NCBI GenBank assembly: GCA_963924555.1
Contig: OZ004596.1
Coordinates: 4,164,139-4,228,138, forward strand
Direction of reading: 5' to 3'
DNA: 64,000 nucleotides
Source of the DNA: Crambe crambe
Taxonomy: Eukaryota > Porifera > Demospongiae > Poecilosclerida > Crambeidae
Shown here: in pieces, positions 1,748-55,470 of the stretch
How positions within the stretch are numbered: position 1 is the first letter of the stretch
How the letters are laid out: every line of letters starts with the position of its first letter
Position numbers and translations under genes: made by a program
Notes under the pieces: model-generated
The model's input: only the letters and a program-made list of their open reading frames with translations
The model's database searches: none
Told to the model about the DNA's origin: nothing

Positions 1748-2022
1748 TTATTTGTGCATATATATATTTTTAATTTCTGATGCAATATCTTTACGGTTGA
1801 CTGTTGGGTCTTTCAGTGCTTCATAGAGGTTACTCCATGATGGTTTCTTTTCTGCTTTCCACTTAAACCATCCATCCACAACTTCATTTACACACTGCTT
1901 CACATCCGAGGGATTATTTGCCTTTATTGCGATAATCTCTTCTGATGGCAATCCAAGAGCCTCAGCTAAGTTTTGCCATTCCTTTATGATGCCTTTTAGT
2001 GCTATTTTCACCTCATGTACAC
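1748..2022 (-). CDS. Death domain, terminal exon
   Basis: This exon of 275 nt starts after the acceptor at 2023-2024 and ends at the TAA at 1748-1750. It encodes a Death-fold six-helix pattern: EWQNLAEALGL in the first half, then the VNEVVDGWFKWKAEKKPSW segment and the final SNLYEALKDP helix. Death domains mediate homotypic assembly in apoptosis and innate immune complexes. It is preceded by two small exons, 2083-2125 (43 nt) and 2185-2219 (35 nt), which link it to the UPA region in frame. ZU5-UPA-Death is the order seen in UNC5, PIDD and ankyrins, so this tail belongs to that supramodule. Confidence 0.8.
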
Positions 2023-5000
2023 CTTTATTTTTAAAAATTCCAATCCATGAAACAACAGTAGGTCCAGGCTATTGAAACTCACGTATAGGTTCATACACTT
2101 CACCACTTTCAATTGTGGAATTAACCTGATCATTTTTTAAAAGAATTAATTAGAGAACTTTATACTCCAATGTAAGAAACTTACAGAAACAGAAGCACCA
2201 TGAATCTGGTTGGTTGAACCTTAAAAAGGAGAAAGGAAAATATATACATAGCTAATTATTATGCTGAAAATTTGACTGCTTTGAGGTATATCTACACTGA
2301 ATACAAATATAGGTTGCTATACCTGGTGGTGGTGATATTGTAAAAGTGCATTTTTTATTAAGTCCAACTACATTCAGTTCGAGAGGTTTTGATCTATCAG
2401 CAAGGAAGGTGATATAGATTCTAGGAGGGAAGTCTGACATCCTTGAAGCGCTCCTATAGTTGGTCTCAGGGAAGTCTATCTCTTCTTTTGTTATCTATAT
2501 AAAAAGATAGATGCAAGCATGCATGCATGGACTGTAAAGACTGAAGTGTGTGGAACACACCAAGTTGTTGCAATATTCGCACCAAAAGTTGAAACTAGCG
2601 AAAACGTGACAGTTTGGTATTGGGATTGCATTATTCATATCCAGGACAACAATTATAACTATAAGTGCTTACCTCATGTTTATCCATTATACACTTTGCC
2701 ACTTCCCCTTCAAGAGTAACTGTTTCACTTTTAACTGTCAAATATTTGTGGACAGTAAGGTATTCAGCTGTATGTGTCATTCCAGAGTAATTCTCGGGGA
2801 TATACTGATTACAATGCTACATAATTCAACAGATTAGTCATTGGATCCGTAGAAAAATCAATGCACATTACCTGTATATAGTATGCATGATCAGGACACA
2901 TGCAAAACACAGCATTGTTTGCATTCAATGATTTATACAGTCTTGCTGAGTATAGGATTTGACCTGATTTGAAAAGGTTAGCAAGTTAGTAAACTAAGGT
3001 ATAGCTACATAGTATACAGTTAGCTACCTCTTATCCTCCTTCTACTAAATATTCTCCACCAACTGAAATTGATTAGTTCTATTTCCCCATATTGACTTCC
3101 GTCAGCATGAAACTTTCCTTTGATTCCTCCTTCCTCTTCCTTGAAAACATAAACTGGATCAGATCCTCTATATTCTGGAACTGAACTGGCCCTCAGAAAC
3201 ACCATACTTTTGCAATCATTTTCATTTTTTGCTCTAATATAATGTTGCATCTTCACTAAAAGTGGCTTTTTCAACTCTATTTTCTTGCTTGTTTCTATGA
3301 GATAGGCTGGACTAGCTGGCTCAAAACCCTTTGGTGTTTCAAAGATTTCATTAAAACTAGGCTGGATAACTAGCTCCACAGACTCCATTGGTGAGATTGA
3401 GCCTTCAGGGATGTCTATAAATAATCCCATATCATCTCGATGGTCTACTTCTTTTCCTGCATGTGGGATTTGTTCAATGACTCTTGCACTGTTGGTGATC
3501 ACAATTTTATCTTCACTGAGATCTTCTTTCTTATGATCCATCCCTACATTATGAGAATTTGTGTGAAGGGTCAATCAGAGGCTGCATGCATGTACTTATT
3601 TCTGGCTGCACACTTGCAGAGTGATTATAATTATTATTATACTAGCTGCAACCATATGGCATACCATCTTTAATGCAATTTTTTTTCTTGTAATAGTCCA
3701 GTAAAACATTCCATGTTTTATTATATCTCAATAGCATCTGGTTACCTGCATTATGATAGATGAAGTGGCAAGCTTGCACATGGACAGTGTAAACATATAT
3801 ACAGTATAGCACTGAGGGATTCATAAATTTCGCAAAAGGCGAGAAAATTGCAAAAAGATCTGCAGGGTGAGGCCAGCTAGCTATATGGTCCCATGACGTA
3901 CGTGACTGTGGAGACGAGTAGCCTGATTTATCTAGCTACTCTGACACAATCACCTAACTAATTTAGCTAATGATTTGTGATAGCGTTCCATTCAAGTTTA
4001 GTACATCTCAACCTCAGACAGTGGACCTCTGTCAGAGCTCGATTCCTTAGCTTGCTAGGCCTCTATAGTAGTTACGAGCTAAAAGTAAGTTGTGTATTCA
4101 TGAAACCAATGAATGATGAATGGTAGGGGAAGGGGGGCAGGCCTGGAGTGAAAAGACTGATATGTGTGGCTTTTTTGCTGGCATTTGTGAAATTAGATTC
4201 TGCGAAAAGAAAATTTGAGCTGATTTGCGAAATATGAATCTCTCGAAAATAAAGTGCTCGGTAGTAGCTATACTATACTCAGTAGATTCAACTTATTAGC
4301 AAGCTACGTACACGTGCATGCACAAAACAGATTGTGTGCTCACCGATGATGACAAGACCATACTTGCTCCTGGTGATGCCCACATTGATCTGATGCTTAT
4401 CAGTGATGAAGCCAAGATGTTCACTCAGCCACTCCGTGTCTGGCTGCACATATTGTGTATTCTTGATCTCTTCAAGAGGCAATGAGCGCACAGTAGACAG
4501 AATGACGATACCATATTCATCTCCTTAAGGAATTATAGTTATTAGCCAGTGTGGCAGCATGCTTTTCTTCTAGTCATTTGACACTAACCTTGGCTCTCGG
4601 TAATGGATGCTACTTTTAGTTGTGAAAGTGCTCCTGTCAATTTCTTTACCATTTGTATAATTGTATTCTTTTGTGCAGAATAAAAAGTCAAGACAGCAAT
4701 TTGATCTATTGGTACTTGGTGTTTCCAATGAAGAACTTGAACGATCTCAATCTATGCATGCAAAAGTTATTGTTATTGCTATAATTATCATCATTATTGT
4801 ACATTATTTTGCTGACCACTTTTTTAGCCTCTTCCTCATTGAACTTTGAATCAACACCAATGCTGGCACCTTTACTCCCTGTTAGATGCTGTCCTTCCTC
4901 TCCAACTACATCCACAAACATGATAGGAAATTCCTCCCCCTGAGGCCAAAACCCCTTCAATTTAGATTCAGGGTTTGTACGCCTCTTTACAGAATCATCT

Positions 5001-8000
5001 GTTTCCAATCCACTTTTATAGAACTGCTTAGATGGAAAAGCACATATTTCTTTGTGCTAAAGAAGCAAGAAGTTAATATAATCATATTATACCAAGATTT
5101 AAATATTCATTACCATTCTATACTGGGTTTTTAAGGAGAAAACATATCCTTCTTCTGCGAAATTCTTTGCATATCTTTCAAAAAGGGAGGTGGAGAGACC
5201 ATATTCTCTGGCTTTCCAATAATCGATCATTGGTTGGAGTTGCATGTGGTCTCCAATGAGGACTGCATGCTCACAGAGGCTAATGGGAACCATGGCTTCA
5301 GGTTCAAAAGCCATCCCACATTCATCAATAATGCACTGACGGGGGGACAGATTCCTCACTCGATCGCCTGCAGCTTCAATGCAGGTACAAAATATTATAT
5401 CAAATTTTTCCTGCGAGAAAATTTTTTTCTCAGCATCACTTAGAGCTTGTCTGTACTTGTAGCACAACTTTGCAGTGGCAATTTTACCATTCTTGTTTAT
5501 CGCTTCAATTTTTTCCTCCAAATCTCTGAGAGTTACAAATTCTTCTTCACTTCTATTAGGTTGTCGTATCATATGATGCAAGGCATACTGTTCTGCCCAT
5601 TTAGGGCAGTGAAAATCATCAGATTCTTGCTCAAGTGGATCTCTTTTGCGGTGTCTGGGCAGTGGATAATCATAACGACTCCTTTCAAAAACTTTGGTGT
5701 AAATTCTCAAAATCTTGAAATTTGAAAAATTTTCAAAGTGATAAAATTTTTCTGCAAGAAATCAAGTTAAAAGATAAAATCATGACTTATTGACATGAAG
5801 TCTACACTTCAAAATACCCCAGGAATACATAATATATTATTAATTCGCTTGTCGTTGCCCTATAGTTATGTAGGCTAACTTATGTCATACCGAAAACTAC
5901 ATCAACAGATTTATTTGTAGGTCCACAGTAGAGTACACATCTGTCATCAGATTCCTCTTTATTCTGCTTGGCCAGCTTACATGCTATATGTGCTCCAATT
6001 ATACTCTTCCCGGTACCTTTATGAAATTGTAGATAGGTATACACTCCAAAATGGCATACATACATACATACATACATACATACATACATAACATACACAT
6101 ACAGAATAATTTGATATCAATTACATGCTCTCGAAATAGAAATGGCTTCCAGTAAGTTATCTCTACTACAAAGTGCAGAACAAGTTTCAGGACCAGGGAG
6201 TGTACCATTTCAGAAATACGGAATGCAGGTAAGTCACTGGATTCTTCTCTATTACAACCATATCTTGTGAACCACTCAAGCTACAGAAGTATTGATAAAT
6301 CCACTTCAAATTCCAGTTACGATCTGTTCTACTCATCGATCCTCGAAATAAAAGGGGCAGGATAATCATTCACTGTATATAGCTTTTATTAAGTCAAGGG
6401 GGCACAAATGATTTTAAAAGTTATTTGCTCATTTGCTCGCTGTCAAACATTGCACACTGCCTAGTTATTGTTACATGTACCTGGTGGTCCCTGGATCAAC
6501 TGAAATGGCTTTTTCAGTGCTTTGGCTACAGCTTCTTTCTGGGCCTCATCACTCAACTCAGAGATGCATGACTTTGAAATTTGCTGAGATTCTTCATAAT
6601 ATTTATTAGTAGAGTCTAAAAAGAATTCAATAGTAATATATATATATATGTTATCAATCATGCAACCTTTCATTTGAGAATGATTCACTGCAACATTTTT
6701 GAATAATGGGTCCTTTTTGGATAATGAGTCCTTTTTGGGTAGTGATTCCTTAAGTGTCAATAATACTCTTAAAACTTTCCTACAGAGCAATAAAACATTA
6801 TTTCATAAATCATAATAACCATAGCACTTACGTATAGGTATAACTCAGTATGATAATCTGCACCTCACAGGTAGACTCCTTAGCTTCCAGGATTTGCTTC
6901 ATACTCTTGGATATCTTACAGTTTGCTATGCTTACAGGCTTCATGAGAATGGTTACTTCATCTGGTCTATCATCATTATCATCATTAATATGATGGACCA
7001 CAAAGTGAAAGATAGCTCTCACTGAGTCATATAAGGGGTCAGTCCCATACCTCACGCACACAAGAGTACCAATTTCCACTTGGAAAAATTCACGACACTG
7101 ATTCTTGAAATCCCTTGGAAATGCCATCTTCACATAGCCACTTGGAACATAGTATGGTTCTTCAAAGCACTCTTCTGGGATAATTAACTTAGGCCACTGC
7201 AAGTGGACATCTTGAATGATCACAGTCTGGGACTCCTTGATTGATTTCTCAGCTGCCTCTGCAAGAAGTACTGCCTTCCATAAGTCAACATACTCTTCAA
7301 TACTGGCATACTCAGCCTTGGAAGCTTGCTTCAAGTTGGGATCAGAGAAACACTCTGCTGGGTGGGAGTTGTGTTGGACACAAATACGTAGGAGAGGTGA
7401 AAGTTCCACCAACTGGATGGCAGGAGAGATCAGTGGTTCTCTCATGGACCCGGTCAGCCAGACCTTGAGAATGCTGAATGGTTCCAGAGATGCTCTTATA
7501 TTGTAATCCAGGAAGAAGTACTTCTTATGTGGTTTTATGAGATGAGTTGTAGAGGATGAAGACAAGTGAGATAAGTCTGGCAAAAACTGCCTAATTTTAT
7601 CCATTTTTCCTTTGGTAGGATTCTTTATGAACTTAAGTGCCTCTTCCCAGTTGCTTGGAGAAATTTCTACAACCTGATCTTGTTGGGAAGCTTCAAAATA
7701 TTCGATATCTAATGAATCATCTGAATATTCCAAGCTAAAGGCTTTGATATTTGAATCCTTTAAGCTAGAGGGATTAATATTCATATATTCAGAAGATGAC
7801 TTCAAAATTGATGCAGCAAGATCACTATTTAGAGATGTAACATGCACATTCCATGAGTATAACTGAGGATCAGGCTGGTCTATCACTTTTTCTGGGTCTG
7901 GGTTGAGGTGACTAGATCTCAGTTTTCTTGTTCTGATGGGTAATTGCCTGAGCTCAGATTGAGGAAATATCAATTCTATCGTCCCCTTTAGAGACTGACT

Positions 8001-19215: not shown

Positions 19216-19250
<35 letters not shown>

Positions 19251-19914
19251 TAATTTAAAAGGATGGGCTCTTTAAATGAAGTTAACAATTGCACTATTGG
19301 CCACTCCCTCGCGAGTTTAATGTGTATATGCGGGGTACATGATCACGCGTCAGTCACGCTGAAGGAGCAGGAGCAAGGCATCAACTTACTTGACTGCTGC
19401 TGATTCCTGCTGATTTTCCAGACTTATTTCTCAGACTTACAAGCGTACTTCCCCCCTGATGCCCAAACAAAGAAGACGGGGCCGTGGAGGCAGAGCTACT
19501 TGTGTTGGTCGCGCAACCAGAGCGACACGCAGCCGTACATCAACTCGGGCCTCAGTGGACGATCAACCGGCGGCGGACAGCCAGCCTACCATTGCAGATG
19601 ATACCACACTTTCATCCCTGCAGTTGGGCAGGTTTCTGGAGCTGGTGCGCGCGGAAGTGCGCGAGGAGATGCAGTCACACCAAGGCCAGCTAGCGGAGAC
19701 AGAATCATCTGCTGCTCACCAACTGACGGCTAATGGTGAGACATCCTCAGCTGCTCCAGGTCACATTGGTCATTCCTCAAATACTTCATCATCAGGTATT
19801 TGACTATAGAATTATGACTATAGCTTCTTGCCTTGGTGGTTAACACTTCATCAGGTATTAGTTATCAGCTTTGGCAGGTTGGCCACATTTATTGCAGTGC
19901 TGATTGATGTGTGT

Positions 19915-19951
<37 letters not shown>

Positions 19952-28038: not shown

Positions 28039-28089
<51 letters not shown>

Positions 28090-30579: not shown

Positions 30580-30618
<39 letters not shown>

Positions 30619-42600: not shown

Positions 42601-45600
42601 CAAATGTCAGAGTTGCCAGCTGTAACTAACCACCTTGAAAAATTTTCTGAGTTTTTCTCCCAAGGAGGGATTCCTGAGAGGCTGGGAAGAAGTGCTAGGA
42701 GAAAAGTATACATACAATATCATTAGTCAAAATTAATGGCTAAGCTAATTCCAATTTCCACCTGAGTCTGTCTCACATAACAGTAAAATTGCTTCATGTA
42801 GGGATTGTTACATTCAAGTCAATTACAGGTGTTAGATATTCCCTAAGGTGTGTGAAGTAGCTATGTTGAACATCTGCCGGTGTTTTTTTTTTTGAAGGGG
42901 GGGGTCATCCCTGCATAGAGAGTGCTACTAGCAATTACACTCTCTAGTATAATTATTGGTACCTTTAAGTATGGGGTAGTATTCATGATCTTGATCATAC
43001 ACTCTTGATACCCCAATTTCTTTAAGCTGCTTCATTTGTTCCCCATTTAACGGAAAAATTTCATCAAGCTCATGAAGAACATAGAAACCGAGCTTGACAC
43101 AACCGTCTTCCACATCTCTCAAATAGATAGGTTTGCCCAATATATTTGTTAACCTTGATTCAATGTCAAGAATTTCTTTATATGGAACATCAAAAACCTT
43201 ATCAGTCTTAACATAAAATTTCTTTCCTTCATTTTTCTCAGCAGCTGCTGCATAGATATATGGTACTTCACAAAGTCTGCGTTCACAATAATGTTTAAAG
43301 TTTGCTACATAAGTAGTTAACTTGTTTTTATCATCAGGTGTACCAAAGCGAGTAATTATATTCTTCAAAATTCTATAACTGTAAAAGAAACAGTGATCAA
43401 ATGCTTTATTCAATATCTTGGAAATTTTGTCATCAGATTCGCTTAATTTTGGTATCTTGTAAGGTTTGAGTAATAATCTCAGGGATTCTGGATCTGTTGT
43501 TTTGTTCAAAGATTCTTCAGTCTCAGATATCAGAAGTGCAAATTCATCTTGGATGTCCTCACTCTCCATACTCAGTCTTGCTTTAAGTCTACCCTTCTCT
43601 TCTTTTGATAAATGTTTACATTCTAACATTGGAAACTTCTCTTTTGCAACACCTGTGGTATAAGGTTATTCCACGAAGTTAAGGAGTTTCACTATTAAAT
43701 TTTTAGGAACGTGAGAGCTGTTGCTATTAAGGGCACAGCCCAAGGTCATTGTAGCAACAGCTCGTTATATAGCCACAATTAGATGGTAGGGCATTAACCT
43801 AAGACTATGGCAGGGTAAGCTAGTGTACTGTATATTTATACTGTCACACTTTCAGCAATATTGTTGGGTTTCTGGTAGTTCTAAAATTTTTCCTAGCCAT
43901 CATATGAAAATAGTTTTTACTTTAGACCTTGAAGAAGATAAGGAATGTGATGCTTCTCCCTGTATTATTGCATAATCTGGAGAGATGCATCCAGTGTGGG
44001 TGGGATGTGACTGTGGGGTGTGGTTTGCTGGTGTGCAAAATCATGGAGATTTCTGTGGTAAAGTGTGGTACTCTTTATAAACTTGTATGGATTACTTTAA
44101 TATTACTCTGTAATTACTTGTGTATAATTTGTGGTTTTATGTTCATCCTAGACTAGTTCTTTTAATTCATGTAAATAGTTAGTATTTGTCAGTTGTCATC
44201 TGTTGTCAATTTAATCCAATACATATTGCTGCTTCTGCGTGCTATCACTAAGTTATCACAATTTCCTTTTATGTGATATATGCAATGCCAATGCCATTTG
44301 AATTGTTTTTGGCATCCTTGATGTCCAGGGTTCTCCCTAGGCATCTTAAGGCATAGCGGGGCGCTATGCCTCAGTTCTATCCGCTATGCCTTCTTCTTGT
44401 ACCGCTATGCCTTGTAGATTGATTATTCTTGATGTAGCACACCAGATTAGTCATGCGTGGTTTGCAATAATAACATAATTCCTTATAAGGCAGGTGTTGT
44501 TATTGTAGTACACGTGTAGGTTGCAATGCATATAAATAGCAAAGAGAATTGCTCTAAAGATCTTTGTAGTCAGACCAAGGTTAGATGATAGTGGAAGTAG
44601 TAAGTGCAGCTCAGCCTCTAAACCTCTTATGGATCCATATGACTTGGTGATTAATAAGCTGTTATAGTGCAAATAGAGCTAATCTGGGACCTTATTGGAT
44701 TCGCTATATTTCAGCTTCTGCACTATGCATGGGAGGGGGAACATCCCCCTCCCGCACCCACCCCCTGTGGATGCCATACAAGCTCACCCCTATGCCTTAA
44801 GAAAATCCTGGGGAGAACCCTGATGTCACTTGAAATTTTCCTTTTTTTTCATAACAATATTTTGTACTAATAGCTAAATGTCCCCATCACACAAGCTCCA
44901 TCTGAAATGAGAGGTCATGACCATTGCAACTTCCGGCAAGTCGTGTACAGTTCTACTAGACCTGTGCACTTTTTTTTGTTGCACGCAAATAGAGGAAGGA
45001 ATACCCTTTCTATTCTTGCTTTGAAGTTCAGTTTATCCTATTCCATTCCTATTTTAGTTTGGTAATTTGATCTTCGTCCAGCAGAGGAGGTAATTGTCCA
45101 GACAAGGAGGTCTTGGGATGGCATTGCCAGAGCAACAGAATGAATGGTTAAAAGCTGAACGTCAAGTCTTTACTGATATGATAGTAGGTAGAAACTTTTG
45201 CAGTCAGCGCTGTTTCTCTCTGAATTACGGTGTCCGGAGTGTGATGGTATCCGACGGTAGATTATACCTTGGTGAAGAATGCCAATGCAGAAATACTATA
45301 GCATAAGGATCATCTGTCGCATGCACACACCATTTTTATTAGAATGAAATCTCAATGCCAGCATAATTGTAATGGAGGGGAGGGTTCAAAGGGTCTGCAG
45401 TACCCTTCTTTTCTAGTGGCATAGCGATGCATGCTATATACACTTTCAAAGGAGCCATGTAACTTTAAGCTAGCTAACAAATTTACCTTCATCTGTGCCA
45501 ACTTTGTTCTTTTGCGAATGAGAGTATGATTGAGAGACAATGCTCACTGATGTTTGAGTTTCTACATTTCCCACAGGAGTTGCAAGATCCAAAGGTAAGT

Positions 45601-47396
45601 CTATAAAATAAAATTTATAAATCCACTGAAAAAACATTCCTACAGTAATGATTAAGCAGAAATGCTGAAAGCATGCATACTCCTTTTAAGTGCATCACAT
45701 TGCATTCATGTTGATTATTCAGCAAAATTTAGAACTTTTCTACTTGGTTTATGTGGTTACCCTTGTTACAGGTTGGTTGTCATACTGGATGGTTGTCAGT
45801 AAGGATAGGTACTGTCCATTGCAGGTTGGTTGTCAGGAAGGTTTGGGGAATAGGTGGATATAAATTGTCCTATGGTTTACACAAACTGCATGGATTGTAT
45901 AGGACCATTTCTTAGGTCCTTGTAAGCCACTACCTATTTCTCATTCCTACCATCCACAAGGACCTGATCCTATACAGAATGTGCAGTTGTGTAAACCATA
46001 GAACCCCAAACCTTTTGTGCAATGGAGTATTATGGCTTCCATCTATACCAGATAGTTGAGTAGTATAGATGGAAACCATAATACTCCATTGCACAAAAGG
46101 TTTGCGGTCCTATGGTTTACTCAACTACATATCAGGGAGTGCAAGTAGGGATGGCAGGTCAAAGGTCATAAGACCTTTACCCTTACTCTACAGGTTCTCA
46201 GAAGGCTACTAGTATGAATTGCTACAAGAGGGAAGAATGTTTAAAAATCTAAAATTCATTTGCTAACATAAATACTTTTTGTTCTTTTTCTTTATAATAA
46301 TAATGATATCCCAACTTGCTAGCTTAGTCATCAAAATTCTGTTTTGGGCATCTGTTATAAGAGGCTCAGTGATATCGATAGCACTCGGACCACTAGAAGT
46401 ACTAGAGCCAAGCTTCAGTGCTCTTCAGCTAGCTAACTGCAGTTTAAATTGCTTAGCTATATAGCTGATCCGATGGTGTTCCAGTCACTCCTTAGTACAG
46501 ATGCTCATCCTATTATAGCCAGTACTTGGCTGTAGTGTAGTCTGCTTACTTCACCATGCCATGCACATGTCATTTACATAGCTGTTGTTATAAAGATTGA
46601 TATTTTAGATTATAGCAGATACTTCAGAAGAAATTTTTTTGCGCTCACTTGTTTCCATCCCTTTTCTTAGTGCTTTTCTTTCATAACTGTGATGTTAAAA
46701 GTATGTAAAGAATTGAGGGTGGCAGTATTGATTGCCTGAGAGCATGCAGTGGTTCTATGACACAAAGCAACAGTCAGACCTTATTTATCTTTGTAGGTAT
46801 GCAAGAAATGGATTGGGTGTTGCTGCTTCTTTTGGATAGTTCATTTTGAGCTTGTGTTGGAGGAACAGGGTCATATAGGAGAGAGGAGGTGCTGGTATGG
46901 GTGTGGTAATCACAGACTGAGAACATTCTATTATAGTGTATTAGTATCAAGTAGTTAGCAAGTACCTGTATAGATACTAGACTTTTGATTTGGAAAGCTC
47001 ATGATTAATTAACTACTTCACTGCATGTGTATGCTCTGGCAATATACAAGGTTAATGGGAGGAGTGAGCATGTACCTATATTTTACCTTTCCTGATGGCA
47101 GAAGCAACCCCTCCCTGACCAATATTGTCTAGGGATGTGATCAAAGATGTCCAAGATGGAGGGCCACTCATTTTCAACACACTGTCCATCCCGTTGAGCC
47201 AGGCATCCACCATATCATCGGGCAGGTCCTTCATCTTCTTAAGGTTGGAATAAAGCAATCCGAGAGCAGTGCCCAGTTGTCTTAACTGTTCATTGTTTAA
47301 GACCTTCAGACTCTTACAGACTTTAAAGTGATCTTCTGTAGACAGTCGCAAACTGGGATGTTCCCTGGCATCACTGTATTTCTTTGATTCGGCCAT
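1748..47396 (-). CDS. Giant Death-HELZ2-like-Death gene, 36-exon model
   Basis: This is the overall model; module entries give details. Exons joined in order from 47396 to 1748 keep compatible phases at all 35 junctions with GT-AG borders, giving about 4,310 codons from the ATG at 47394-47396 to the TAA at 1748-1750. Order: Death, Death-associated module, CCCH finger, helicase 1, helicase 2, RNB, helicase 3, ZU5, UPA, Death. HELZ2 proteins are helicase-RNB-helicase ATPases acting on RNA; the Death folds suggest assembly of a signalling complex. The weakest links are three: the two introns over 11 kb, and the junction 3665/3543, where an alternative reading ends the helicase protein at 3642. 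If that stop is used, ZU5-UPA-Death is a separate gene starting at the ATG near 3541. Gene finders may split this into two to four genes. Confidence 0.6.
2083..2963 (-). CDS. UPA-like domain exons between ZU5 and Death
   Basis: Five small exons: 2872-2963 (92 nt), 2673-2804 (132 nt), 2323-2494 (172 nt), 2185-2219 (35 nt) and 2083-2125 (43 nt). All have GT-AG borders and matching phases. The peptide runs from ILYSARLYKSLNANNAVFCM through TVHKYLTVKSETVTLEGE to FLADRSKPLELNVVGLNKK and ends in SPPPG. The beta-rich stretch between ZU5 and Death sits where the UPA domain sits in UNC5, PIDD and ankyrin; I assign it by position and pattern. In PIDD and UNC5 the UPA domain packs on ZU5 and Death to keep the protein closed, and the same could hold here (inference). 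Confidence 0.65.
3028..3543 (-). CDS. ZU5 domain exon
   Basis: This 516-nt exon lies between an acceptor at 3544-3545 and a donor at 3026-3027. It encodes a ZU5 fold: the stretch DDMGLFIDIPEGSISPMESV, then VELVIQPSFNEIFETPKG, then ASPAYLIET and KKIELKKPLLVKMQHYI, ending in INFSWWRIFSRRR. ZU5 domains occur in ankyrin, ZO-1, UNC5 and PIDD. If the exon belongs to a separate gene, the start would be the ATG at about 3541 (MDHKKEDLSED). If it is fused to the helicase, the donor at 3663-3664 joins it in phase after NCIKDG. No other start is obvious, and only about 100 bp separate the two coding regions. Confidence 0.8.
3642..6779 (-). CDS. SF1 (UPF1-like) helicase 3 of HELZ2-like protein
   Basis: Exons: 6667-6779, 6481-6615, 5891-6016, 5114-5751, 4820-5056, 4589-4751, 4344-4523 and 3665-3745 (or to the TAG at 3642). 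Helicase motifs are in order: I GPPGTGKS split by the intron 6017-6480; Ia region CGPTNKSVDVV; II DECGMAFEPEA; III LIGDHMQLQP; IV QYRM; V SQGDEYGIVILSTVRS; VI NVGITRSKYGLVIIG. The C-terminal WNVLLDYYKKKNC is typical of the UPF1/HELZ2 group. The enzyme should be an ATP-driven RNA or DNA unwindase; all key residues are present. The exon 4820-5056 uses a weak donor (AAAAAA then gtggtc); the stronger-looking alternative at 4803 puts the next exon out of frame. Confidence 0.85.
6017..6480. repeat. Intron with CATA microsatellite and decayed MITE
   Basis: This intron splits the Walker A motif of helicase 3. It contains a (CATA)n run at about 6055-6092. From about 6165 to 6360 lies an eroded copy of the interspersed repeat found intact at 16748-17160 and 17978-18405, recognised by caagtttcaggaccaggga and the following ttcagaaatacgg. 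Confidence 0.75.
6832..10495 (-). CDS. Helicase 2 C-terminus plus RNB exoribonuclease-like domain
   Basis: A single 3,664-nt exon. Its first 110 residues finish helicase 2: motif V VEFRAIFLST and motif VI FNTAITRSRSLVVAVG. A cold-shock-like stretch follows (NRKGAFDGDQVTVDIFP), then the RNB domain of the RNase II/R family: FTIDSKEAQNLDNALSIV, LGVHVVNAAKHIES, YETRSRLSLTPGKIRDV, LLVEELMIWANSEAA and FTSPLQRYVDIEVQRMLLKK. RNB enzymes degrade RNA 3' to 5' with four clustered Asp. The usual D-x5-D-x-DD pattern reads D-x5-N-x-DN here, so two of four acids are Asn and hydrolysis may be lost. About 350 residues after RNB belong to the inter-domain and next helicase N-terminal region. Helicase-RNB-helicase is the HELZ2 signature. 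Confidence 0.88.
10551..12478 (-). CDS. SF1 helicase 2 of HELZ2-like protein
   Basis: Exons: 12246-12478, 11168-12185, 10686-11108 and 10551-10629, continuing into 10495. Motifs: I GPFGTGKTRLLARAAYDIL; Ia LICAHHNASVDTFVEYF; II FIDEGAQTREPE; III VIAGDHCQ; IV LTNYRCHN. The next exon carries motifs V and VI. An N-terminal region with ILKDVLTVKNYRDKFHHLL and HEEEEHAHQLAKRC precedes the ATPase; the same element is found ahead of helicase 1. The domain should bind nucleic acid and hydrolyse ATP. The exon layout matches helicase 1 almost exon for exon, pointing to a tandem duplication of this module. Confidence 0.88.
12559..12985 (-). CDS. Spliced Ser/Pro/Thr-rich linker between helicases 1 and 2
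   Basis: Three tiny exons, 12926-12985 (60 nt), 12704-12819 (116 nt) and 12559-12647 (89 nt), have good GT-AG borders and keep frame between the helicase 1 exon ending at 13051 and the helicase 2 exon starting at 12478. The peptide is low-complexity (SPAVSPQHSASKLSIGSPQ, then SSSASSGEHMTDMGPTTPA, then KEPKIHANKPAESEPSNES). The chance of four junctions agreeing in phase by accident is low. This is the main evidence that helicase 1 and helicase 2 lie in one protein rather than two genes. Confidence 0.75.
13051..15093 (-). CDS. SF1 helicase 1 of HELZ2-like protein
   Basis: Exons: 14049-15093, 13587-13994, 13438-13519 and 13051-13387. Motifs: I VNGSFGTGKTRMLAIAA; Ia LICAHHQSSADHYIEQYF; II LLDEGSQSREPENIAPL; III VLAGDSCQ; IV NTNYRCHPDIMK; V DIQGQEFQALFMST; VI FNTVLTRAKSLVVVVG. 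All catalytic positions look intact. It is closer to helicase 2 than to helicase 3 in wording and in exon structure. Its N-terminal exon lies 11.3 kb upstream at 26396-26892, on the far side of a repeat-filled intron. Canonical HELZ2 has two helicases, so this third one is extra. Confidence 0.87.
15161..15400. repeat. Fold-back MITE
   Basis: The element runs from tgagtgcaaaaaatttcttc to its reverse complement gaagaaattttttgcactca. The arms pair over about 100 bp around a short loop near 15270-15305. It shares the terminal sequence (gcaaaaaatttcttc) and the GTAGGGAT-type motif with the larger element at 28726-29187, so the two families use related ends. Confidence 0.85.
15660..16215. repeat. 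Interspersed repeat ending in agagagtgctagcgcactctct
   Basis: Sequence with tagcaaaagatcagcctcta, ctgtagccttctgagaacct and gacccgccatccctacttag. Homologous copies are at 29935-30463 (near full length), 16560-16750 (left part), 25945-26151 and 26155-26381 (right parts), and inverted at 46139-46300 with more inverted pieces up to 46600. It has no coding capacity. The right end is a short perfect palindrome. Confidence 0.8.
16748..17160 (+). repeat. Interspersed repeat, copy 1
   Basis: It starts with agagagtgtggtagcactct and the motif tatgtagggatgactcggac, then runs through gcagaccaagtttcaggacc, a GAA/CTT-rich stretch and caaccatatctctcgaacca. A second direct copy is at 17978-18405 and inverted copies at 24850-25335. 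A decayed copy lies in the intron at 6165-6360. Confidence 0.8.
17167..17462. repeat. Fold-back MITE, copy 1
   Basis: This is a near-perfect hairpin of about 135-bp arms, from aagggaaaaatcatttcgtg to its reverse complement, with a loop of about 25 bp around tacgtacattactacac. Two more copies occur at 18412-18710 and 25660-25944. The arm contains agatgtagggatgaccactg and, near the loop, acaatccctacatatacg. Confidence 0.9.
17470..17960 (+). repeat. Interspersed repeat, second half, copy 1
   Basis: Follows the hairpin: ttgttcctggtctttttt, ggacagatgaaagaagaata, cttggaggtcgaagatgctg, tggatatcaaatacatgcgc, then the inverted counterpart of the gaaccactcaagctac segment. A second direct copy is at 18712-19220 and an inverted copy at 25336-25659. 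Together with the preceding repeat it forms a composite unit of about 1.2 kb with the hairpin nested inside. Confidence 0.75.
17978..18405 (+). repeat. Interspersed repeat, copy 2
   Basis: Direct repeat of 16748-17160 with small differences. It is followed by hairpin copy 2 and the second half at 18712-19220, so the whole composite unit is tandemly duplicated here. Confidence 0.8.
18412..18710. repeat. Fold-back MITE, copy 2
   Basis: Same hairpin as 17167-17462, with near-identical arms and a slightly longer loop (tataatctgaagctacccg). Confidence 0.9.
18712..19256 (+). repeat. Interspersed repeat second half, copy 2, ending in an ATA run
   Basis: Direct copy of 17470-17960, ending in a (taa)n tract at about 19217-19251 that borders the DIRS-like element. 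Confidence 0.75.
19459..21140 (+). CDS. Gag-like region of DIRS-like element
   Basis: Three open segments. 19459-19795 encodes an Arg/Thr-rich start (MPKQRRRGRGGR). 20192-20926 encodes a helical region with RRLVDKARSGQFTEMKELLA and WLDYDRAFRQQAAADP. 20930-21140, in another frame, encodes a Cys/His cluster (FCVSWNKGACYFP, then HECPVCRSADHKAKDC) typical of DIRS-type gag. Between the first two lies a possible intron, donor after TCATCATCAG and acceptor ggtggcag, containing a (TG)n run at 19909-19989. The second and third segments are in different frames, so the product needs a frameshift or the copy is broken. Confidence 0.6.
21582..23477 (+). CDS. Reverse transcriptase and RNase H of DIRS-like element
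   Basis: Open frame from 21513; the likely coding part begins after an acceptor at about 21582. RT signatures: GLVPKLHQLNKFRLIVDLSH, LTKLDIKDAYRIIPVNPDD, ALPFGLRSAPKIFSAVAD and the catalytic LHYLDDFLF. RNase H follows: EVTSDASGSFGCGAF, NIAAKELVPIVIA, FNSDNMAVVGII and HVPGVDNTAADAISR, with the expected D, E and D residues. The enzyme copies element RNA into DNA. The 3' end overlaps the recombinase frame, as is common in DIRS elements. Confidence 0.85.
   Translation, partial: GPSVKAISLDCANIVNGSYRYTQDLVQLAAFVSSQPSPLWPRYHSPIRMENLSPFLNSHPDATYAAYIREGLTKGFRIGFNYSNTSLRSRGSNHPSTLANERVVDDRIATEVAAGRLHGPLPLHLKPLAHTSPMGLVPKLHQLNKFRLIVDLSHPIGASVNDGISPDLCSLRYASVDEAVNVIRRLGRDAQLTKLDIKDAYRIIPVNPDDYHLLGISWRGATYIDRALPFGLRSAPKIFSAVADLVAWVLHQQGIKHQLHYLDDFLFLDAATPQGSTGTLEQVLRIFQGLGIPIATQKTEGPNTALVFLGILIDTHRFELRLPLEKLTRLQTALQHWKKKRSCTRRELESLLGHLSHAATVVRQGRTFLRQLFPLLSLNRAPHHWIRLNAGSKADLLWWSTFLQGWNGTSFFPISTPSTEVTSDASGSFGCGAFSLSHGWFQIQWPDNWHSLNIAAKELVPIVIAAALWGHHWKHSCVCFNSDNMAVVGIIRSRTAKDPLLMHLVRCLVFYAASCGFEFIAEHVPGVDNTAADAISRNNIPLFHSLVPQLSHVTVPKVVLDLLVTRMPNWGSQEWTVLLARSLIRESQDQPELCTNQAGASTSTSAHNTPCPHFLLRNTPSASLPPSSHSQ
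23288..24298 (+). pseudogene. Tyrosine recombinase of DIRS-like element, one in-frame stop
   Basis: One reading frame interrupted by a single TGA at 23492-23494. The N-terminal part (SRSTRAVYQSGWRQYIHFC) is a SAM-like core-binding domain. The catalytic domain after the stop carries FMRAGEF (first Arg), LRHSKTDPFG, HYAGHSFRIGAATAAAQAG (His and second Arg) and FLAYIR (nucleophile Tyr). Enzymes of this class insert DIRS circles without a DDE integrase. Apart from the stop the domain reads intact, so the copy looks recent. Readthrough or sequence error cannot be excluded. Confidence 0.8.
24578..24712 (+). repeat. 42-bp tandem repeat at 3' end of DIRS-like element
   Basis: About 3.3 units of 42 bp (gggggcgaccctgctggggc then cccctagctctatgttctatgt), starting at about 24578, 24620 and 24662. 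The period is a multiple of three, which leaves short spurious open frames on both strands. Confidence 0.85.
24850..25659 (-). repeat. Inverted copies of the interspersed repeat
   Basis: Two tandem minus-strand copies of the 16748-17160 repeat (about 24850-25090 and 25095-25335) are followed by an inverted copy of the 17470-17960 segment (25336-25659). With 16748-19256 they form a large interrupted palindrome around the DIRS-like element. Confidence 0.8.
25660..25944. repeat. Fold-back MITE, copy 3
   Basis: Same hairpin as 17167-17462, with a shortened loop (about 15 bp, tcgggtagcttcaga). Confidence 0.9.
25945..26381 (+). repeat. Two partial copies of the agagagtgctagcgcactctct repeat
   Basis: Right-hand parts of the 15660-16215 repeat in tandem (25945-26151 and 26155-26381), each ending in the ccatccctacttag motif and a short palindrome. 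They end 15 bp before the donor of the exon at 26396. Confidence 0.8.
26396..26892 (-). CDS. Pro/Gln-rich linker and N-terminal exon of helicase 1
   Basis: This 497-nt exon begins after an acceptor at 26893-26894. The correct frame gives a repetitive Pro/Gln/Tyr/Arg-rich stretch (LPYRQLRPLPYNQVQRPLP, then YPSYQNSPRHIPPPSHLP) and ends with VAIEDELTKVNYKRKFCDL and WEEKEHIERLRQK. The last part aligns well with the helicase 2 exon at 12246-12478 (VLTVKNYRDKFHHLL, EEEHAHQLAKR) and ends at the same phase-2 intron. That ties it to helicase 1 exon 15093 across 11.3 kb. A Leu/Tyr-rich open frame also exists here in another frame; it is a shadow. Confidence 0.7.
27208..27817 (-). CDS. Zinc-finger exon (CCCH type) and 35-nt microexon
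   Basis: Exon 27482-27817 (336 nt) encodes a Cys/His-rich segment: ICRKCFYDYRRIF, DCPHF, and near the end MCEPIFCRRDECTYAHG with spacing C-x4-C-x4-C-x3-H followed by ERNQW, the pattern of CCCH fingers in HELZ/HELZ2 and ZC3H7 proteins. A 35-nt microexon at 27208-27242 (HTVSNQGAGNW) bridges it in phase to the Pro/Gln exon at 26892. The domain likely binds RNA. It precedes the helicases exactly where HELZ2 carries its zinc fingers. Confidence 0.75.
28726..29187. repeat. Complete fold-back MITE
   Basis: Starts acaagtgaatgcaaaaaatt and ends with the reverse complement. The arms pair almost perfectly to the centre catga/tcatg at 28945. The copy at 1-324 is the right part of another member. Near each end is the motif gtgaagtagggatggcc. 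Confidence 0.92.
29935..30463 (+). repeat. Near-complete copy of the 15660-16215 repeat
   Basis: Direct copy with the same landmarks (gcatctgtactgtaattcag, ctaatagcaaaagatcagcc, gacccgccatccctactta) and the same terminal palindrome. Confidence 0.85.
30937..31244 (-). CDS. Tyr/Pro-rich linker exon
   Basis: This 308-nt exon lies between an acceptor at 31245-31246 and a donor at 30935-30936. The peptide reads LDEHAGAYVEFIGGPGFKVD, SKPPLPHPQPKQNCYAPQPD, an acidic EEEEEPPSPLPPRR and a Ser/Pro tail. I recognise no domain; the tyrosines and polyproline suggest a disordered adaptor-like segment. It joins in phase to the zinc-finger exon downstream and to 42487 upstream across 11.2 kb. Membership in the giant gene rests on those phases, on strand and on similar style to the exon at 42487-42576. 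Confidence 0.55.
31761..32590. repeat. 426-bp tandem duplication (two copies)
   Basis: The segment starting caatttagacagttttgaat at 31761 is repeated from 32187 with minor changes, including a shorter A-run. It forms the left end of the larger array of related repeats that continues at 32590-33400 and 38500-42120. Confidence 0.85.
32420..33400. repeat. Degenerate ~0.9-kb repeat unit
   Basis: Landmarks: gcctaactcgacttcgtttt, gacgatctttaccatacg, caagccttgattgcagacag, ttatggccttccagcatcaa and ttttctacttggtatgtggt. Further units, more or less complete, are at 38500-38990 plus 39561-39800, at 39850-40780, at 40840-41470 and at 41660-42110, with an inverted fragment at 41455-41650. The Copia element is inserted between the first unit and the rest. 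Confidence 0.75.
33509..33659 (+). repeat. 5' LTR of Copia element
   Basis: 151 bp, starting TGTTGAAATT and ending GATTTCAATA (short inverted termini). Compared with the 3' LTR it lacks a segment after tggatcatgt and carries other small differences. Confidence 0.92.
33661..33673 (+). promoter_or_regulatory. Primer binding site matching initiator Met tRNA anticodon arm
   Basis: GTTATGGGCCCAG lies one base after the 5' LTR. It is complementary to the conserved anticodon stem-loop of eukaryotic initiator tRNA-Met (CTGGGCCCATAAC). Drosophila copia is known to prime from a 5' half of this tRNA, so the same mechanism is likely here. Confidence 0.8.
33740..34420 (+). pseudogene. Copia gag, frameshifted
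   Basis: Starts at an ATG at 33740 (MAEGKILSIIPLNGSNYPTW), breaks frame near 33805, continues in another frame (LATIVLAVDPSLLYLIGTD, REYIKKMTETFDELA) and shifts again near 34310 before the CCHC zinc knuckle (CHYCKKPGHFKKDC). Gag packages element RNA. Two frame changes mean no intact product. Confidence 0.85.
34460..35810 (+). pseudogene. Copia protease and integrase, frameshifted
   Basis: The protease active-site motif DSGAT is at about 34515. A frame change near 34650 is followed by the pre-integrase HHCC-like region (LWHRQFGHLN, CEACIGGKQ) and an rve integrase core with its three acids visible: HSDV, RTDNGGEF and PEQNGAAERLN. A further frame change near 35740 leads into the spacer before reverse transcriptase. 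The integrase core itself is uninterrupted. Confidence 0.87.
35812..37539 (+). pseudogene. Copia reverse transcriptase and RNase H, with stops
   Basis: RT signatures: WVYKVKTNNNGSVERYKARL, HHIDVATAFLNATL, KSIYGLKQSPRCWN and the catalytic MYVDDMILAG. RNase H: GYSDADWAGD, STAEAEYVALS and the C-terminal CPTHEMVADMLSKGL. Two in-frame stops interrupt conserved blocks, TGA at 37003-37005 and TAA at 37345-37347. All parts remain in one frame, so decay here is by point mutation. Confidence 0.88.
37564..37721 (+). repeat. 3' LTR of Copia element
   Basis: 158 bp, same termini as the 5' LTR. A purine-rich tract (tgagtgaggaggag) ending at 37563 immediately precedes it and is the likely polypurine tract for plus-strand priming. 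Confidence 0.92.
37727..38996. other. Intronic sequence between Copia element and TIR element
   Basis: No gene seen. It begins with a CT-rich run near 37757-37772, has an (AT)n run at about 38417-38438, and from 38500 continues the degenerate ~0.9-kb repeat array. Confidence 0.5.
38997..39552 (+). mobile_element. 556-bp TIR element carrying a RecQ-like fragment
   Basis: Ends AGTCTGGC and GCCAGACT, with inverted repeats of about 55 bp that include acccctggtaaaaaataggg. The 8-bp target duplication ACTTGTAT is at 38989-38996 and 39553-39560. Sister repeat units lack the insertion, confirming the empty site. An internal open frame at 39153-39377 encodes FGILPTGYGKSLCY, the helicase motif I of RecQ-type proteins. 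An 8-bp duplication fits hAT-like superfamilies. The element cannot encode a transposase. Confidence 0.8.
39561..42120. repeat. Array of degenerate ~0.9-kb repeats
   Basis: Three to four eroded units, starting at about 39850, 40840 and 41660, with an inverted fragment at 41455-41650. The A-rich joints resemble gaaaaaaaaagaaaaa. A short insertion at 40395-40550 begins with ggggcggctccatagggggg and ends with its imperfect inverse, so it may be another small TIR element. No coding content. Confidence 0.7.
42487..43652 (-). CDS. Death-associated module and Tyr/Pro-rich linker
   Basis: Exons: 42963-43652 (690 nt), 42634-42694 (61 nt) and 42487-42576 (90 nt), all GT-AG and in phase. The first encodes about 230 residues with a recognisable pattern: ESLRLLLKPYKIPKL, ISKILNKAFDHCFFYSYRIL, TTYVANFKHYCERRLCEVPY, LTNILGKPIYLRDVEDGCVK and LFPL-like EIFPLNGEQMKQLKEIGV. 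From memory, modules of this kind accompany Death or NACHT domains in sponge, cnidarian and echinoderm proteins; it has no name that I can give with confidence. The short exons add ESYDYVDQFPAPPKLPS, a disordered Tyr/Pro linker. Confidence 0.7.
43653..45486. other. Intron with a TIR element
   Basis: Between coding exons 42963-43652 and 45487-45600. It contains the 497-bp TIR element at 44326-44822 and otherwise AT-rich unique sequence. I see no further exon needed for phase. Confidence 0.55.
44326..44822. mobile_element. 497-bp TIR element
   Basis: Starts CAGGGTTCTCCC and ends GGGAGAACCCTG. Sub-terminal inverted ccttaaggcata-type sequence adds to the pairing. It is flanked by atgtc at 44321-44325 and 44823-44827, a possible 5-bp target duplication. 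There is no transposase, and the superfamily is uncertain. Confidence 0.7.
45487..45600 (-). CDS. Linker exon after N-terminal Death domain
   Basis: A 114-nt exon with acceptor at 45601-45602 and donor at 45485-45486. It encodes LPLDLATPVGNVETQTSVSI then VSQSYSHSQKNKVGTDE. It enters and leaves in phase 1, matching the Death exon at 47087 and the module exon at 43652. No domain; a flexible Ser/Thr linker. Confidence 0.55.
46001..46105. repeat. Short fold-back palindrome
   Basis: Arms of about 40 bp, from aaccttttgtgcaatggagt to its reverse complement, around a loop near 46055. A looser inverted pair (ctatggtttacacaa) lies outside it at 45870-46130. Confidence 0.8.
46139..46600 (-). repeat. 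Inverted copy of the 15660-16215 repeat
   Basis: Minus-strand landmarks: agtagggatggcaggtcaaa, cagaaggctac, catcaaaattctgttttggg, gttccagtcactccttagta. It is more diverged than the other copies and extends further left of the unit. Confidence 0.7.
47087..47396 (-). CDS. N-terminal Death domain exon (first coding exon)
   Basis: ATG at 47394-47396; donor at 47085-47086. The 103 residues start MAESKKYSDAREHPSLRLS and contain a Death-fold pattern: VLNNEQLRQLGTALGLLY, KDLPDDMVDAWLNGM, SGPPSWTSLITSLDNIGQGG and VASAIRK. No upstream in-frame ATG lies between this and the GC-richer promoter-like stretch. Death domains form helical assemblies with other Death proteins such as adaptors and IRAK-type kinases; partner unknown. 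It could be the start of the giant gene or of a smaller Death-module gene ending near 42487. Confidence 0.75.
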
Positions 47397-48586: not shown

Positions 48587-49098
48587 CATTGTAAGGGTTC
48601 ACTAGCCTCTTGCTGGGTGTTGTCATCAGAGGGGGGATAGAGATTGTCACAATTCTGGCACTGGCACTCTTCGCCACACTGGGTCTGTTTCCTGAGGCAG
48701 CTGCAGCGTCTGGTAGAGCAGCCTGTGATGCACTTGTAACCACTCAGAAGAAATCATGGACATGATATTTGGAGAAGAGGACAATCAAGGTAATCTGGAG
48801 TTGGATGCAAATGAGTTCAATTAGTGTGAAACAGAGCTAGCTAATGGTGGACACGTGCAAACAAATTTTCTGTTTTCTCCTAGGTTATGAAACTTGGTAG
48901 TTACAGTCTTTACTCACACTTCCGTTGTAATATCCAATTTAGAGTTGTTCTGTCCAGCCAATGCTGCATAGCATCCTCTTCTGTTCGATCATCTTTGTTT
49001 CTAATTGTAGCACATCCACAAAAACTAGTAGTGGTACTTAGGAAAGGCTTAGTCCTGGCATCTAAAACTGGTGATAAAAGATAGAAAGCTTCCTTCAA
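48587..49098 (-). CDS. Hypothetical minus-strand exons with Cys-rich CXC-like motif
   Basis: One exon ends at a donor at 48585-48586. In the best frame it encodes KCITGCSTRRCSC then QTQCGEECQCQNCDN, a CXC/TSO1-like cysteine cluster of a kind seen at the C-terminus of transposon-related invertebrate proteins. An upstream open segment, 48918-49098, encodes FYLLSPVLDARTKPFL and LDRTTLNWILQRKC and ends in a clean donor. I could not join the two in phase, so an exon is missing or the gene is broken. Most of the region lies inside the 3,180-bp duplication and recurs at 51835-52278. Confidence 0.4.
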
Positions 49099-54800: not shown

Positions 54801-55014
54801 TCAGTACAGTGTGTTGCCATTAGCCAGTATAGCTATAGCTATAGCTATTATGGAACTATACTATTATTTCAAACATGGCCATGATTATGGAATATTTTTG
54901 TGCTTAGTAAGTGTTACTAATAGTACAGTTGATTTAGTAAAACTTGCAACAGAGTTTTGGACTTTTGTAGCCAGTGGTTAACCAAACTCTGGCTACATCA
55001 ATGAAATATGGTAA
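51835..55014. repeat. 3,180-bp tandem duplication, unit 2
   Basis: Second copy; see unit 1. It ends at gaaatatggtaac, after which unique sequence resumes. Confidence 0.95.
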
Positions 55015-55470
55015 CCTGTGATAACATTGTAGTAGAAAATTTGTTGCAAGTCTTATTAAATCAACTGTACAAGCTCTAGCTATAATTATGCATATTACTG
55101 TTATGATAATAGTATGCACGCTACCAGGCTCTAAACTGGCCACTCACCTTCTCTCAGGTGGGTTGATTTAATAACCATATACTCAGATAACTATTGTTAT
55201 GGTCTCATTAATTTATCTCATACAGAATGATATTCATTTGAAAAGGAAACAGATACAATTAGAAATTGCAAGATTTTGATTTAATAATAATATTAACTAG
55301 TTCAGCAAGTGTGTGACTGTAGCTAGCTACGTAGGCTAAGTGTTACAGAAGCAACTTTATTAGTGGTCCATGGTCTGTGATTTTGTCAACCCCACCTGGC
55401 CGTGGCAATTCCAATTCAATTCAAGTTTGAATAAGCCGCAGGAGCACAAACAGGTAGGAGTGAAATAAAA
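55015..55470. other. Short unique stretch
   Basis: AT-rich sequence with no gene seen. It includes a partial inverted echo of the end of the 3,180-bp unit (caacagagttttggacttttg region), which could indicate rearrangement near the duplication border. Confidence 0.4.

What the first reader, a model, noticed from the sequence alone, without database searches (positions are those of the whole stretch)
1748..47396. One giant gene: Death, zinc finger, three helicases, RNB, ZU5-UPA-Death
36 minus-strand exons joined by hand have compatible phases at every junction, and the total length divides by three, from an ATG at 47396 to a TAA at 1748. The product would be about 4,310 residues: a HELZ2-like helicase/RNB machine with an extra helicase and Death-fold domains at both ends. 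I know of no described protein with this order. It would be a plausible cytosolic RNA sensor that signals through Death-domain assembly. The architecture is seen in sequence; the sensor role is inference.
Basis: partly seen in the sequence, partly recalled or inferred. Interest (0 to 1): 0.95.

Follow-up and report, generated by a model that had tools for sequence, protein, structure and literature searches.

The report
Death-domain-capped HELZ2 gene, probable sponge
In what appears to be a sponge, a copy of the transposon-fighting gene HELZ2 (an RNA helicase and nuclease) has probably been joined to cell-death signalling domains at both ends, and its nuclease site is decaying, which suggests an RNA-degrading enzyme turning into an RNA alarm.

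Summary
I rebuilt a clean 30-exon, 4,098-residue frame from the same ATG (47396) to the same TAA (1748). The core is HELZ2-like (CCCH finger, two SF1 helicases, RNB, third SF1 helicase); a similar core occurs in Amphimedon, so the extra helicase is not the novelty. The death-fold caps are. C-terminus (well supported): in all five copies of one clade (ours and four sisters) a ZU5 exon follows a donor inside the last core exon by 121-150 nt, splice sites conserved; the array-1 copies read lack it. In our copy that junction crosses 15 kb of transposon-rich sequence and needs cDNA. Matching phases are weak evidence, since these module exons begin and end in phase 1. New: RNB catalytic aspartates are lost (2 of 4 here, 3 of 4 in copies A and B) while all three helicase ATP motifs persist. 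Best reading: HELZ2 turning into a death-fold RNA sensor; structure fairly secure, function inferred, no transcript seen.

The parts
47087..47396 (-). Exon 1: ATG plus Death-fold domain (310 nt, ends in phase 1)
42963..43652 (-). TRADD-N exon (690 nt, phase 1 to 1): N-terminal helices, C-terminal ferredoxin-like fold
   Evidence: Pfam TRADD-like_N E 0.0044, under the curated cut-off; secondary structure; 150 matches in the genome, a capped list that includes pieces; in sister copies A and F (also with a profile that leaves both out)
30937..31244 (-). Possible proline-rich linker exon (308 nt), coding by conservation; inclusion uncertain because of phase
   Evidence: C12:1805488-1805766, 80% identical, about 12 kb from the C12 TRADD-N relative as here
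27482..27817 (-). CCCH-type zinc-finger exon, first exon of the HELZ2-like core; acceptor where the two array-1 genes read have their ATG
   Evidence: CCCH spacing read by eye, no Pfam zinc-finger hit
27208..27242 (-). Core exon (35 nt)
26396..26892 (-). Core exon: proline-rich stretch and helical linker
13051..15093 (-). SF1 helicase 1 (exons 15093-14049, 13994-13587, 13519-13438, 13387-13051); Walker A GSFGTGKT, Walker B LLDEGSQ
12559..12985 (-). Linker exons 12985-12926, 12819-12704, 12647-12559; no paralogue match for the latter two
10551..12478 (-). SF1 helicase 2 (exons 12478-12246, 12185-11168, 11108-10686, 10629-10551); Walker A GPFGTGKT, Walker B FIDEGAQ
6832..10495 (-). 3,664-nt exon: end of helicase 2, OB_HELZ2-like region, RNB domain (catalytic motif FTIDSKEAQNLDNALS) and following region
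   Evidence: dN 0.098 and dS 0.275 against copy E
4344..6779 (-). SF1 helicase 3 (exons 6779-6667, 6615-6481, 6016-5891, 5751-5114, 5056-4817, 4751-4589, 4523-4344); Walker A GPPGTGKS, Walker B IIDECGM
3642..3745 (-). Last core exon: donor G|GTATGC at 3665/3664 leads to the ZU5 exon; unspliced it ends at the stop at 3642
   Evidence: donor in all five copies of the clade, absent in the three array-1 last exons read
3028..3543 (-). ZU5 exon (516 nt, phase 1 to 1); FSWW motif with N in place of H
2323..2963 (-). UPA-region exons 2963-2872, 2816-2673, 2494-2323
   Evidence: splice sites conserved in the 5-copy alignment. UPA named by position only
1748..2022 (-). C-terminal Death domain exon and TAA stop; exact 5' splice site uncertain
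   Evidence: Pfam Death E 1.9e-7 on the open frame
33787..37347 (+). Ty1/copia-type retrotransposon inside the intron between the TRADD-N exon and the core
19414..24298 (+). DIRS/Ngaro-type element (reverse transcriptase and tyrosine recombinase; type named by eye) inside the intron between exons 26396 and 15093

Best explanation
The locus is one member of a tandem family of sponge HELZ2-like genes in which the CCCH-helicase-helicase-RNB-helicase core has been joined, through exons that begin and end in phase 1, to a C-terminal ZU5-UPA-Death module (most simply gained once, in the ancestor of five copies) and, in this copy, F and probably A, to an N-terminal TRADD-N exon, with a Death exon in front in ours (and, by eye only, in F). 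Proposed mechanism: the three SF1 helicases and the RNB channel bind foreign or transposon RNA and use ATP; binding frees the terminal Death domains, which the ZU5-UPA supramodule holds back as in UNC5 (recalled), and they recruit Death-fold adaptors to start cell death or NF-kB-type signalling. The RNB site has lost catalytic aspartates in three of the five copies, so capture replaces degradation there. Shown by sequence: domains, order, splice sites, clade, loss of aspartates, intact ATP motifs. Probable: the N-terminal junction in this copy. Inferred: RNA binding, assembly, signalling.
For: C-terminus: a ZU5 exon at 89-92% identity to ours lies behind four sister copies, same strand; in all five copies it is 5.1-6.1 kb from the RNB match. 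The donor GATG|GTATGC in the last core exon and the ZU5 acceptor are present in all five, 121-150 nt apart, and in frame. The three array-1 last exons read have no GT there and end in their own stop; the next gene's ATG follows after 198 and 259 nt at the two boundaries seen. The five form a 100/100 clade; cluster copy 0, without this ZU5, falls with four of the six array-1 copies. N-terminus: the CCCH exon of ours and E has an acceptor where the two array-1 genes read have their ATG. In F a TRADD-N exon (donor CGTG|GTAAGT, phase 1) ends about 260 nt before core exon 2 (acceptor phase 1) with no CCCH exon. A has TRADD-N about 1.6 kb before its CCCH exons. Death followed by TRADD-N recurs: 7 of 24 Death loci fetched, our own included, have TRADD-N within 1.5 kb 3'; ours does not, its TRADD-N lying 3.4 kb away. 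Function: Walker A and B intact in 3 of 3 helicases; RNB aspartates kept: 2 of 4 here, 1 of 4 in A and B, 3 of 4 in E and F. Core dN/dS about 0.36 against E.
Against: No transcript. The stop at 3642 is a possible end, and the other four copies have a stop slightly further on, so a shorter isoform is likely. dN/dS is 0.75-0.94 among the ZU5 exons, roughly 0.4-1.3 in the UPA-region exons (A's 2494-2323 has dS 0) and about 1 for C-terminal Death against A (few changes): weak constraint or diversifying selection. The UPA-to-Death splice needs a weak acceptor. In our copy 15 kb of transposon-rich sequence separates TRADD-N from the core; similarity to a C12 locus stops at about 30767, so the 5' block could be a truncated separate gene. 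F's N-terminal Death exon is by eye only: no Pfam Death hit and not found by a Death profile built without it. 5' of E's core I found no TRADD-N and only two Death-type exons that I assign to F's C-terminus. E and F keep 3 of 4 RNB aspartates, the same as array 1; the second aspartate is also absent in Dysidea. The tree groups A/B with E/F (83/83), so the loss of the fourth aspartate in ours and in A/B may be independent.
Confidence: 0.57

Rival explanations
1. Two genes: a HELZ2-like core with the C-terminal ZU5-UPA-Death module, and a separate Death-TRADD-N gene upstream (47396 to about 30767), sharing a duplicated segment with a C12 gene and lying there by chance.
For: TRADD-N (89%) and the proline-rich exon (80%) have relatives on C12 in the same order about 12 kb apart; the similarity stops about 170 nt past the proline-rich exon; no HELZ2 RNB or CCCH exon on C12; 15 kb of transposon-rich sequence intervenes.
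Against: The core has no ATG where the two array-1 genes read have theirs, and has an acceptor instead; in F and A TRADD-N lies close beside the core; phases fit.
Confidence: 0.27
2. Three genes, the reader's own counter-case: Death-TRADD-N, HELZ2-like ending at 3642, and a small ZU5-UPA-Death gene.
For: A stop at 3642 and a stop slightly further on in the four sister copies; array-1 HELZ2 genes end at the equivalent place.
Against: The ZU5 exon opens with a conserved acceptor about 95-125 nt after that stop in all five copies, leaving little room for a promoter plus first exon; an in-frame donor is present in all five and absent in the three array-1 last exons read.
Confidence: 0.08
3. The fusion is real, but the protein is a nuclease or helicase effector kept in check by death-fold domains, or a regulator of transposon RNA, rather than a death-signalling sensor.
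For: Human HELZ2 lowers LINE-1 RNA; there the helicase mutants lost inhibition while the nuclease-dead mutant had less than twofold effects (PMC9839780, passages), so RNB decay need not end effector function; E and F keep 3 of 4 aspartates.
Against: Two death-fold ends suggest assembly; two or three of four RNB aspartates are lost in ours, A and B.
Confidence: 0.22

Closest known systems
HELZ2 (helicase with zinc finger 2)
   Same: CCCH finger, SF1 helicases on both sides of RNB, OB_HELZ2-like segment; several of the 15 hits are named HELZ2 or HELZ2-like
   Different: One more N-terminal helicase, death-fold modules at the ends, RNB aspartates replaced by asparagine
Amphimedon queenslandica RNB proteins A0A1X7UNX9 (P0001) and LOC109585133 (P0002)
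   Same: 33-35% identical to our core. P0002: two helicases, RNB, then the start of a third helicase where the model ends; P0001: an incomplete first helicase, then helicase, RNB, helicase (order partly read by eye)
   Different: No Death, ZU5 or TRADD-N in their precomputed Pfam lists; catalytic DLDD motif kept
Sponge NCOA6-clade TRADD-N proteins (Kaur et al. 2021, PMC8195603)
   Same: Death-like domain(s), then TRADD-N, then a variable C-terminus, in a lineage-specific expansion
   Different: The section read names ankyrin, SH3-LRR, kinase, MATH, SH2, PDZ, caspase, PNPase and HD as C-termini; RNB, HELZ, SF1 and UPF1 do not occur in the main text (source-data tables not seen)
ZU5-UPA-Death proteins (UNC5, PIDD, ankyrin; recalled)
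   Same: ZU5 exon, then UPA-position exons, then C-terminal Death
   Different: Attached to an RNA helicase-nuclease; the autocleavage-type HFS motif (recalled) reads NFS or DFS in this clade, HFS in paralogue L044
RIG-I-like receptors with N-terminal Death (Porifera, molluscs; PMC8998645)
   Same: Death domain plus RNA helicase in one polypeptide, diversified by domain grafting
   Different: Helicase with RIG-I C-terminal domain, not SF1 helicases with RNB

Membership tests
HELZ2 | RNB domain with SF1 (AAA_11/AAA_12) helicases on both sides | tested here: met
   RNB 2322-2698; three AAA_12 stretches; Walker A at 815, 1605 and 3221
HELZ2 | OB_HELZ2 domain before RNB | tested here: inconclusive
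   PF25049 E 9.1e-6, 25.9 bits, under the 29.3-bit cut-off
HELZ2 | N-terminal CCCH zinc finger | tested here: inconclusive
   C-H spacing by eye in 27817-27482; no Pfam zinc-finger family
HELZ2 | Four RNB catalytic aspartates | tested here: not met
   2 of 4 in our copy; so HELZ2-derived rather than shown to be an active HELZ2 exonuclease. The second position is also not D in the other 13 copies aligned nor in Dysidea
Death superfamily, N-terminal exon of our copy | Six-helix death fold | tested here: met
TRADD-N | RRM-like (ferredoxin-like) alpha+beta domain after helices | tested here: inconclusive
ZU5-UPA-Death | ZU5 domain | tested here: inconclusive
   No direct Pfam hit and no meaningful PDB sequence match; aligns with paralogues that pass PF00791
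ZU5-UPA-Death | UPA domain | tested here: inconclusive
   No Pfam UPA hit in the 398-aa tail (E up to 1); named by position only
ZU5-UPA-Death | C-terminal Death domain | tested here: met
   PF00531 E 1.9e-7 on the open frame and 5.6e-7 on the spliced tail, above cut-off
RIG-I-like receptors | SF2 helicase with RIG-I C-terminal domain | tested here: not met
   No RIG-I C-terminal domain in the Pfam list; helicases are AAA_11/AAA_12 type

The most novel reading that the evidence does not exclude
A tandem sponge gene family caught while turning a HELZ2-type RNA exonuclease into an RNA-triggered death-fold scaffold: catalytic aspartates are lost to different degrees (3, 2 or 1 of 4 kept) while the ATP-driven RNA-binding motor is kept, a ZU5-UPA-Death tail was gained once, and N-terminal Death/TRADD-N heads are exchanged between copies by segmental duplication. 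It would be a nucleic-acid sensor class built on SF1 helicases, independent of RIG-I-like receptors.
Probability: 0.35. Interest if true: 0.85.

Novelty: new variant of a known kind. Interest (0 to 1): 0.7.

Why it matters
Sponges encode hundreds of Death and TRADD-N proteins, and for many the trigger is unclear. A HELZ2-type RNA helicase-nuclease joined to these modules gives one a concrete candidate ligand (RNA) and a testable mechanism. HELZ2 is an interferon-stimulated LINE-1 restriction factor in humans (PMC9839780), so this would link a vertebrate effector to a receptor role at the base of animals. Five sister copies with different degrees of nuclease decay are a natural series for testing enzyme-to-sensor conversion.

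Tried and rejected
Splice-aware predictor without paralogue evidence or with loose splice costs (part of 35): it chained hundreds of spurious exons, many antisense to retrotransposons, and was discarded for a curated exon list. Poly(A) test: no AATAAA/ATTAAA between the stop and the ZU5 exon in 5 of 5 copies, but the two array-1 gene ends also lack one within 300 nt, so it decides nothing. Fused relatives elsewhere: 15 proteins match the core, none with Death, ZU5 or TRADD-N in its precomputed Pfam list; none of 1,988 candidates matched Death-TRADD-N within the length window of about 2,254-7,171 aa; the ZU5-UPA-Death query gave 5 short proteins. Solved-structure searches with profiles of the ZU5, Death and TRADD-N exons gave no meaningful match. 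Foldseek alone had no E below 0.001 for either model. First RNB dN/dS was out of frame and is replaced. I first took the Death exons at L030:8499 and L047:9590 for N-terminal domains of E and A; they end in stops and fit better as C-terminal Death of the neighbouring upstream copies. The Death and TRADD-N profiles contained some of the sequences they found; one search repeated the test without them: A's and F's TRADD-N, F's L046 Death and B's L041 Death stay, F's N-terminal Death exon drops out.

Full report
What was checked. The window lies at G000:C19:4164139-4228138 of a 143-Mb genome. Joining exons with GT-AG sites and paralogue support gave a 30-exon frame of 4,098 residues from ATG 47396 to TAA 1748 with no internal stop.

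The family. RNB searching gives 23 matches in the genome. Two sets on C19 matter: array 1 (0.527-0.607 Mb: six full-length copies and one partial) and cluster 2 (4.086-4.271 Mb, six copies, called 0, A, B, ours, E and F). One array-1 unit read in full has the same CCCH-helicase-helicase-RNB-helicase core. At the two gene boundaries seen, the last exon ends in its own stop and the next gene's ATG, in its CCCH exon, follows after 198 and 259 nt. So the core alone is a complete gene there. The Amphimedon protein P0002 has two helicases, RNB and the start of a third helicase where its model ends; P0001 has an incomplete first helicase, then helicase, RNB, helicase. A three-helicase core is therefore not unique to this genome.

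C-terminal fusion. A ZU5 exon at 89-92% identity lies behind four other cluster-2 copies (A, B, E, F) as behind ours. The alignment of all five shows a donor G|GTATGC inside the last core exon and an acceptor at the ZU5 exon, 121-150 nt apart, joining in frame; the three array-1 last exons read have no GT there. The splice sites of the next UPA-region exons are conserved as well. Death-type exons lie 3' of the ZU5 exon in B and F too (L041:3-245, L046:2194-2475). A tree of RNB exons puts the five copies in one clade (100/100), while copy 0 groups with four of the six array-1 copies (100/100). A single gain of the tail is the simplest history. Against it: a stop at 3642 (with stops slightly further on in the sisters) offers a short isoform, and dN/dS is 0.75-0.94 in ZU5, roughly 0.4-1.3 in the UPA-region exons and about 1 in C-terminal Death (A only), against 0.36 in the RNB exon.

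N-terminal fusion. In ours and in E the CCCH exon has an acceptor where the two array-1 genes read have the ATG. In F no CCCH exon was found and a TRADD-N exon with the donor CGTG|GTAAGT ends about 260 nt before core exon 2. An exon about 1 kb before it looks like a Death domain by eye, but Pfam and a Death profile built without it do not find it. In A a TRADD-N exon lies about 1.6 kb before three CCCH exons. A's and F's TRADD-N exons are found by a profile that leaves both out (E 1.8e-73 and 3.6e-45). In ours TRADD-N lies 15 kb before the CCCH exon, with a Ty1/copia element and other repeats between. The TRADD-N and proline-rich exons have relatives on C12 in the same order and spacing, and the similarity stops near 30767. 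So the block is shared with C12 by segmental duplication, direction unknown, and either splices into the core (my reading) or is a truncated neighbour gene. Matching phases carry little weight because the module exons start and end in phase 1. 5' of E's core I found no TRADD-N, and only two Death-type exons that I assign to F's C-terminus. B and copy 0 could not be read.

Head exchange. Our TRADD-N exon is 89% identical to a C12 exon, but 48% to A's (dS about 2.0) and 35% to F's (dS about 1.5), although A's and F's RNB exons are 79% and 81% identical to ours (dS about 0.26-0.27). Our Death exon is 91% identical to one on C10. Heads have therefore probably been replaced rather than only inherited. 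Death followed by TRADD-N recurs: 7 of 24 Death loci fetched, our own included, have TRADD-N within 1.5 kb 3' (ours lies 3.4 kb away), and 3 of 24 have ZU5 5'. Kaur et al. report 357 TRADD-N proteins in Amphimedon, with the majority of architectural types showing 1-3 Death-like domains, then TRADD-N, then a variable C-terminus (PMC8195603: passages and one section read).

Catalysis. The RNB motif of vertebrate HELZ2 has four aspartates. All 14 HELZ2-like copies aligned from this genome have N at the second (Dysidea has A there, so this position is less telling); ours also has N at the fourth; A and B have N at the third and fourth as well; E, F and the array-1 copies lose only the second. The tree groups A/B with E/F rather than with ours (83/83), so the losses in ours and in A/B may be independent. 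In human HELZ2 a mutant of the first, third and fourth aspartates was designed to be nuclease-dead; it changed LINE-1 inhibition less than twofold, while Walker A mutants lost it (PMC9839780, passages). Mapping our sites onto those numbers is by my reading of the motif. All three Walker A and B motifs are intact. Inactive RNB proteins that still bind RNA are known in fungi (PMC8097288 and PMC8934651: start of abstract in a search listing only).

How it may work. Inferred: RNA engagement by the helicases and RNB channel, ATP-coupled rearrangement, release of terminal Death domains, assembly and signalling. Death plus RNA helicase in one protein is reported for Porifera in a study of RIG-I-like receptors (PMC8998645, passages), and two HELZ2 genes of the sponge Dysidea avara fell in expression on exposure to a symbiont consortium (PMC11229196, one passage). 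These make the idea reasonable but do not show it.

Novelty. No fused relative was found among proteins of about 2,254-7,171 aa. Paper searches 'HELZ2 + sponge' (16 papers, 15 listed), 'HELZ2 + death domain' (5), 'sponge/death domain/ZU5/helicase/Amphimedon' (16, 12 listed), 'TRADD-N...' (3,112, 10 listed) and 'HELZ2/invertebrate/RNB domain/duplicated' (5,451, 12 listed) showed no title describing it; the source-data tables of PMC8195603 were not seen. I file it as a new variant of known kinds.

Noticed in passing
window 48901-55260: A 3.18-kb direct tandem duplication, 94% identical without gaps, each copy with a 118-aa plus-strand and a 95-aa minus-strand open frame.
   Followed up: partly
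window 57888-58786 (+): Kinase-domain exons (Pkinase E 2.9e-8 at 58514-58783, E 0.0023 at 57888-58208) of a divergently transcribed gene, IRAK/receptor-kinase-like by eye.
   Followed up: partly
L032:6320-5200: In the array-1 unit the last two exons of the HELZ2-like gene are tandemly duplicated (two near-identical gene ends), a possible alternative 3' end.
   Followed up: no
L047:5693-6363 and L030:3697-4733: QRICH1-like, possibly crypton-derived open frames (Pfam QRICH1 E 9e-4 in A, below cut-off) on the same strand between the C-terminal Death assigned to the upstream copy and the core of A and E, each ending FLADL and a stop.
   Followed up: no
L047:1071-2222 and L048:7595-7981: Copy A carries three tandem copies of the CCCH zinc-finger exon.
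   Followed up: partly
G000:C19:4077665-4078063: A more distant ZU5 exon (46%) lies about 8 kb behind cluster copy 0: possibly an independent tail or a neighbour gene.
   Followed up: no
window 28220-30618: Repeats found in many places of the genome (hits cover 28220-28720 and 30470-30618) lie between the C12-like block and the HELZ2 core.
   Followed up: partly
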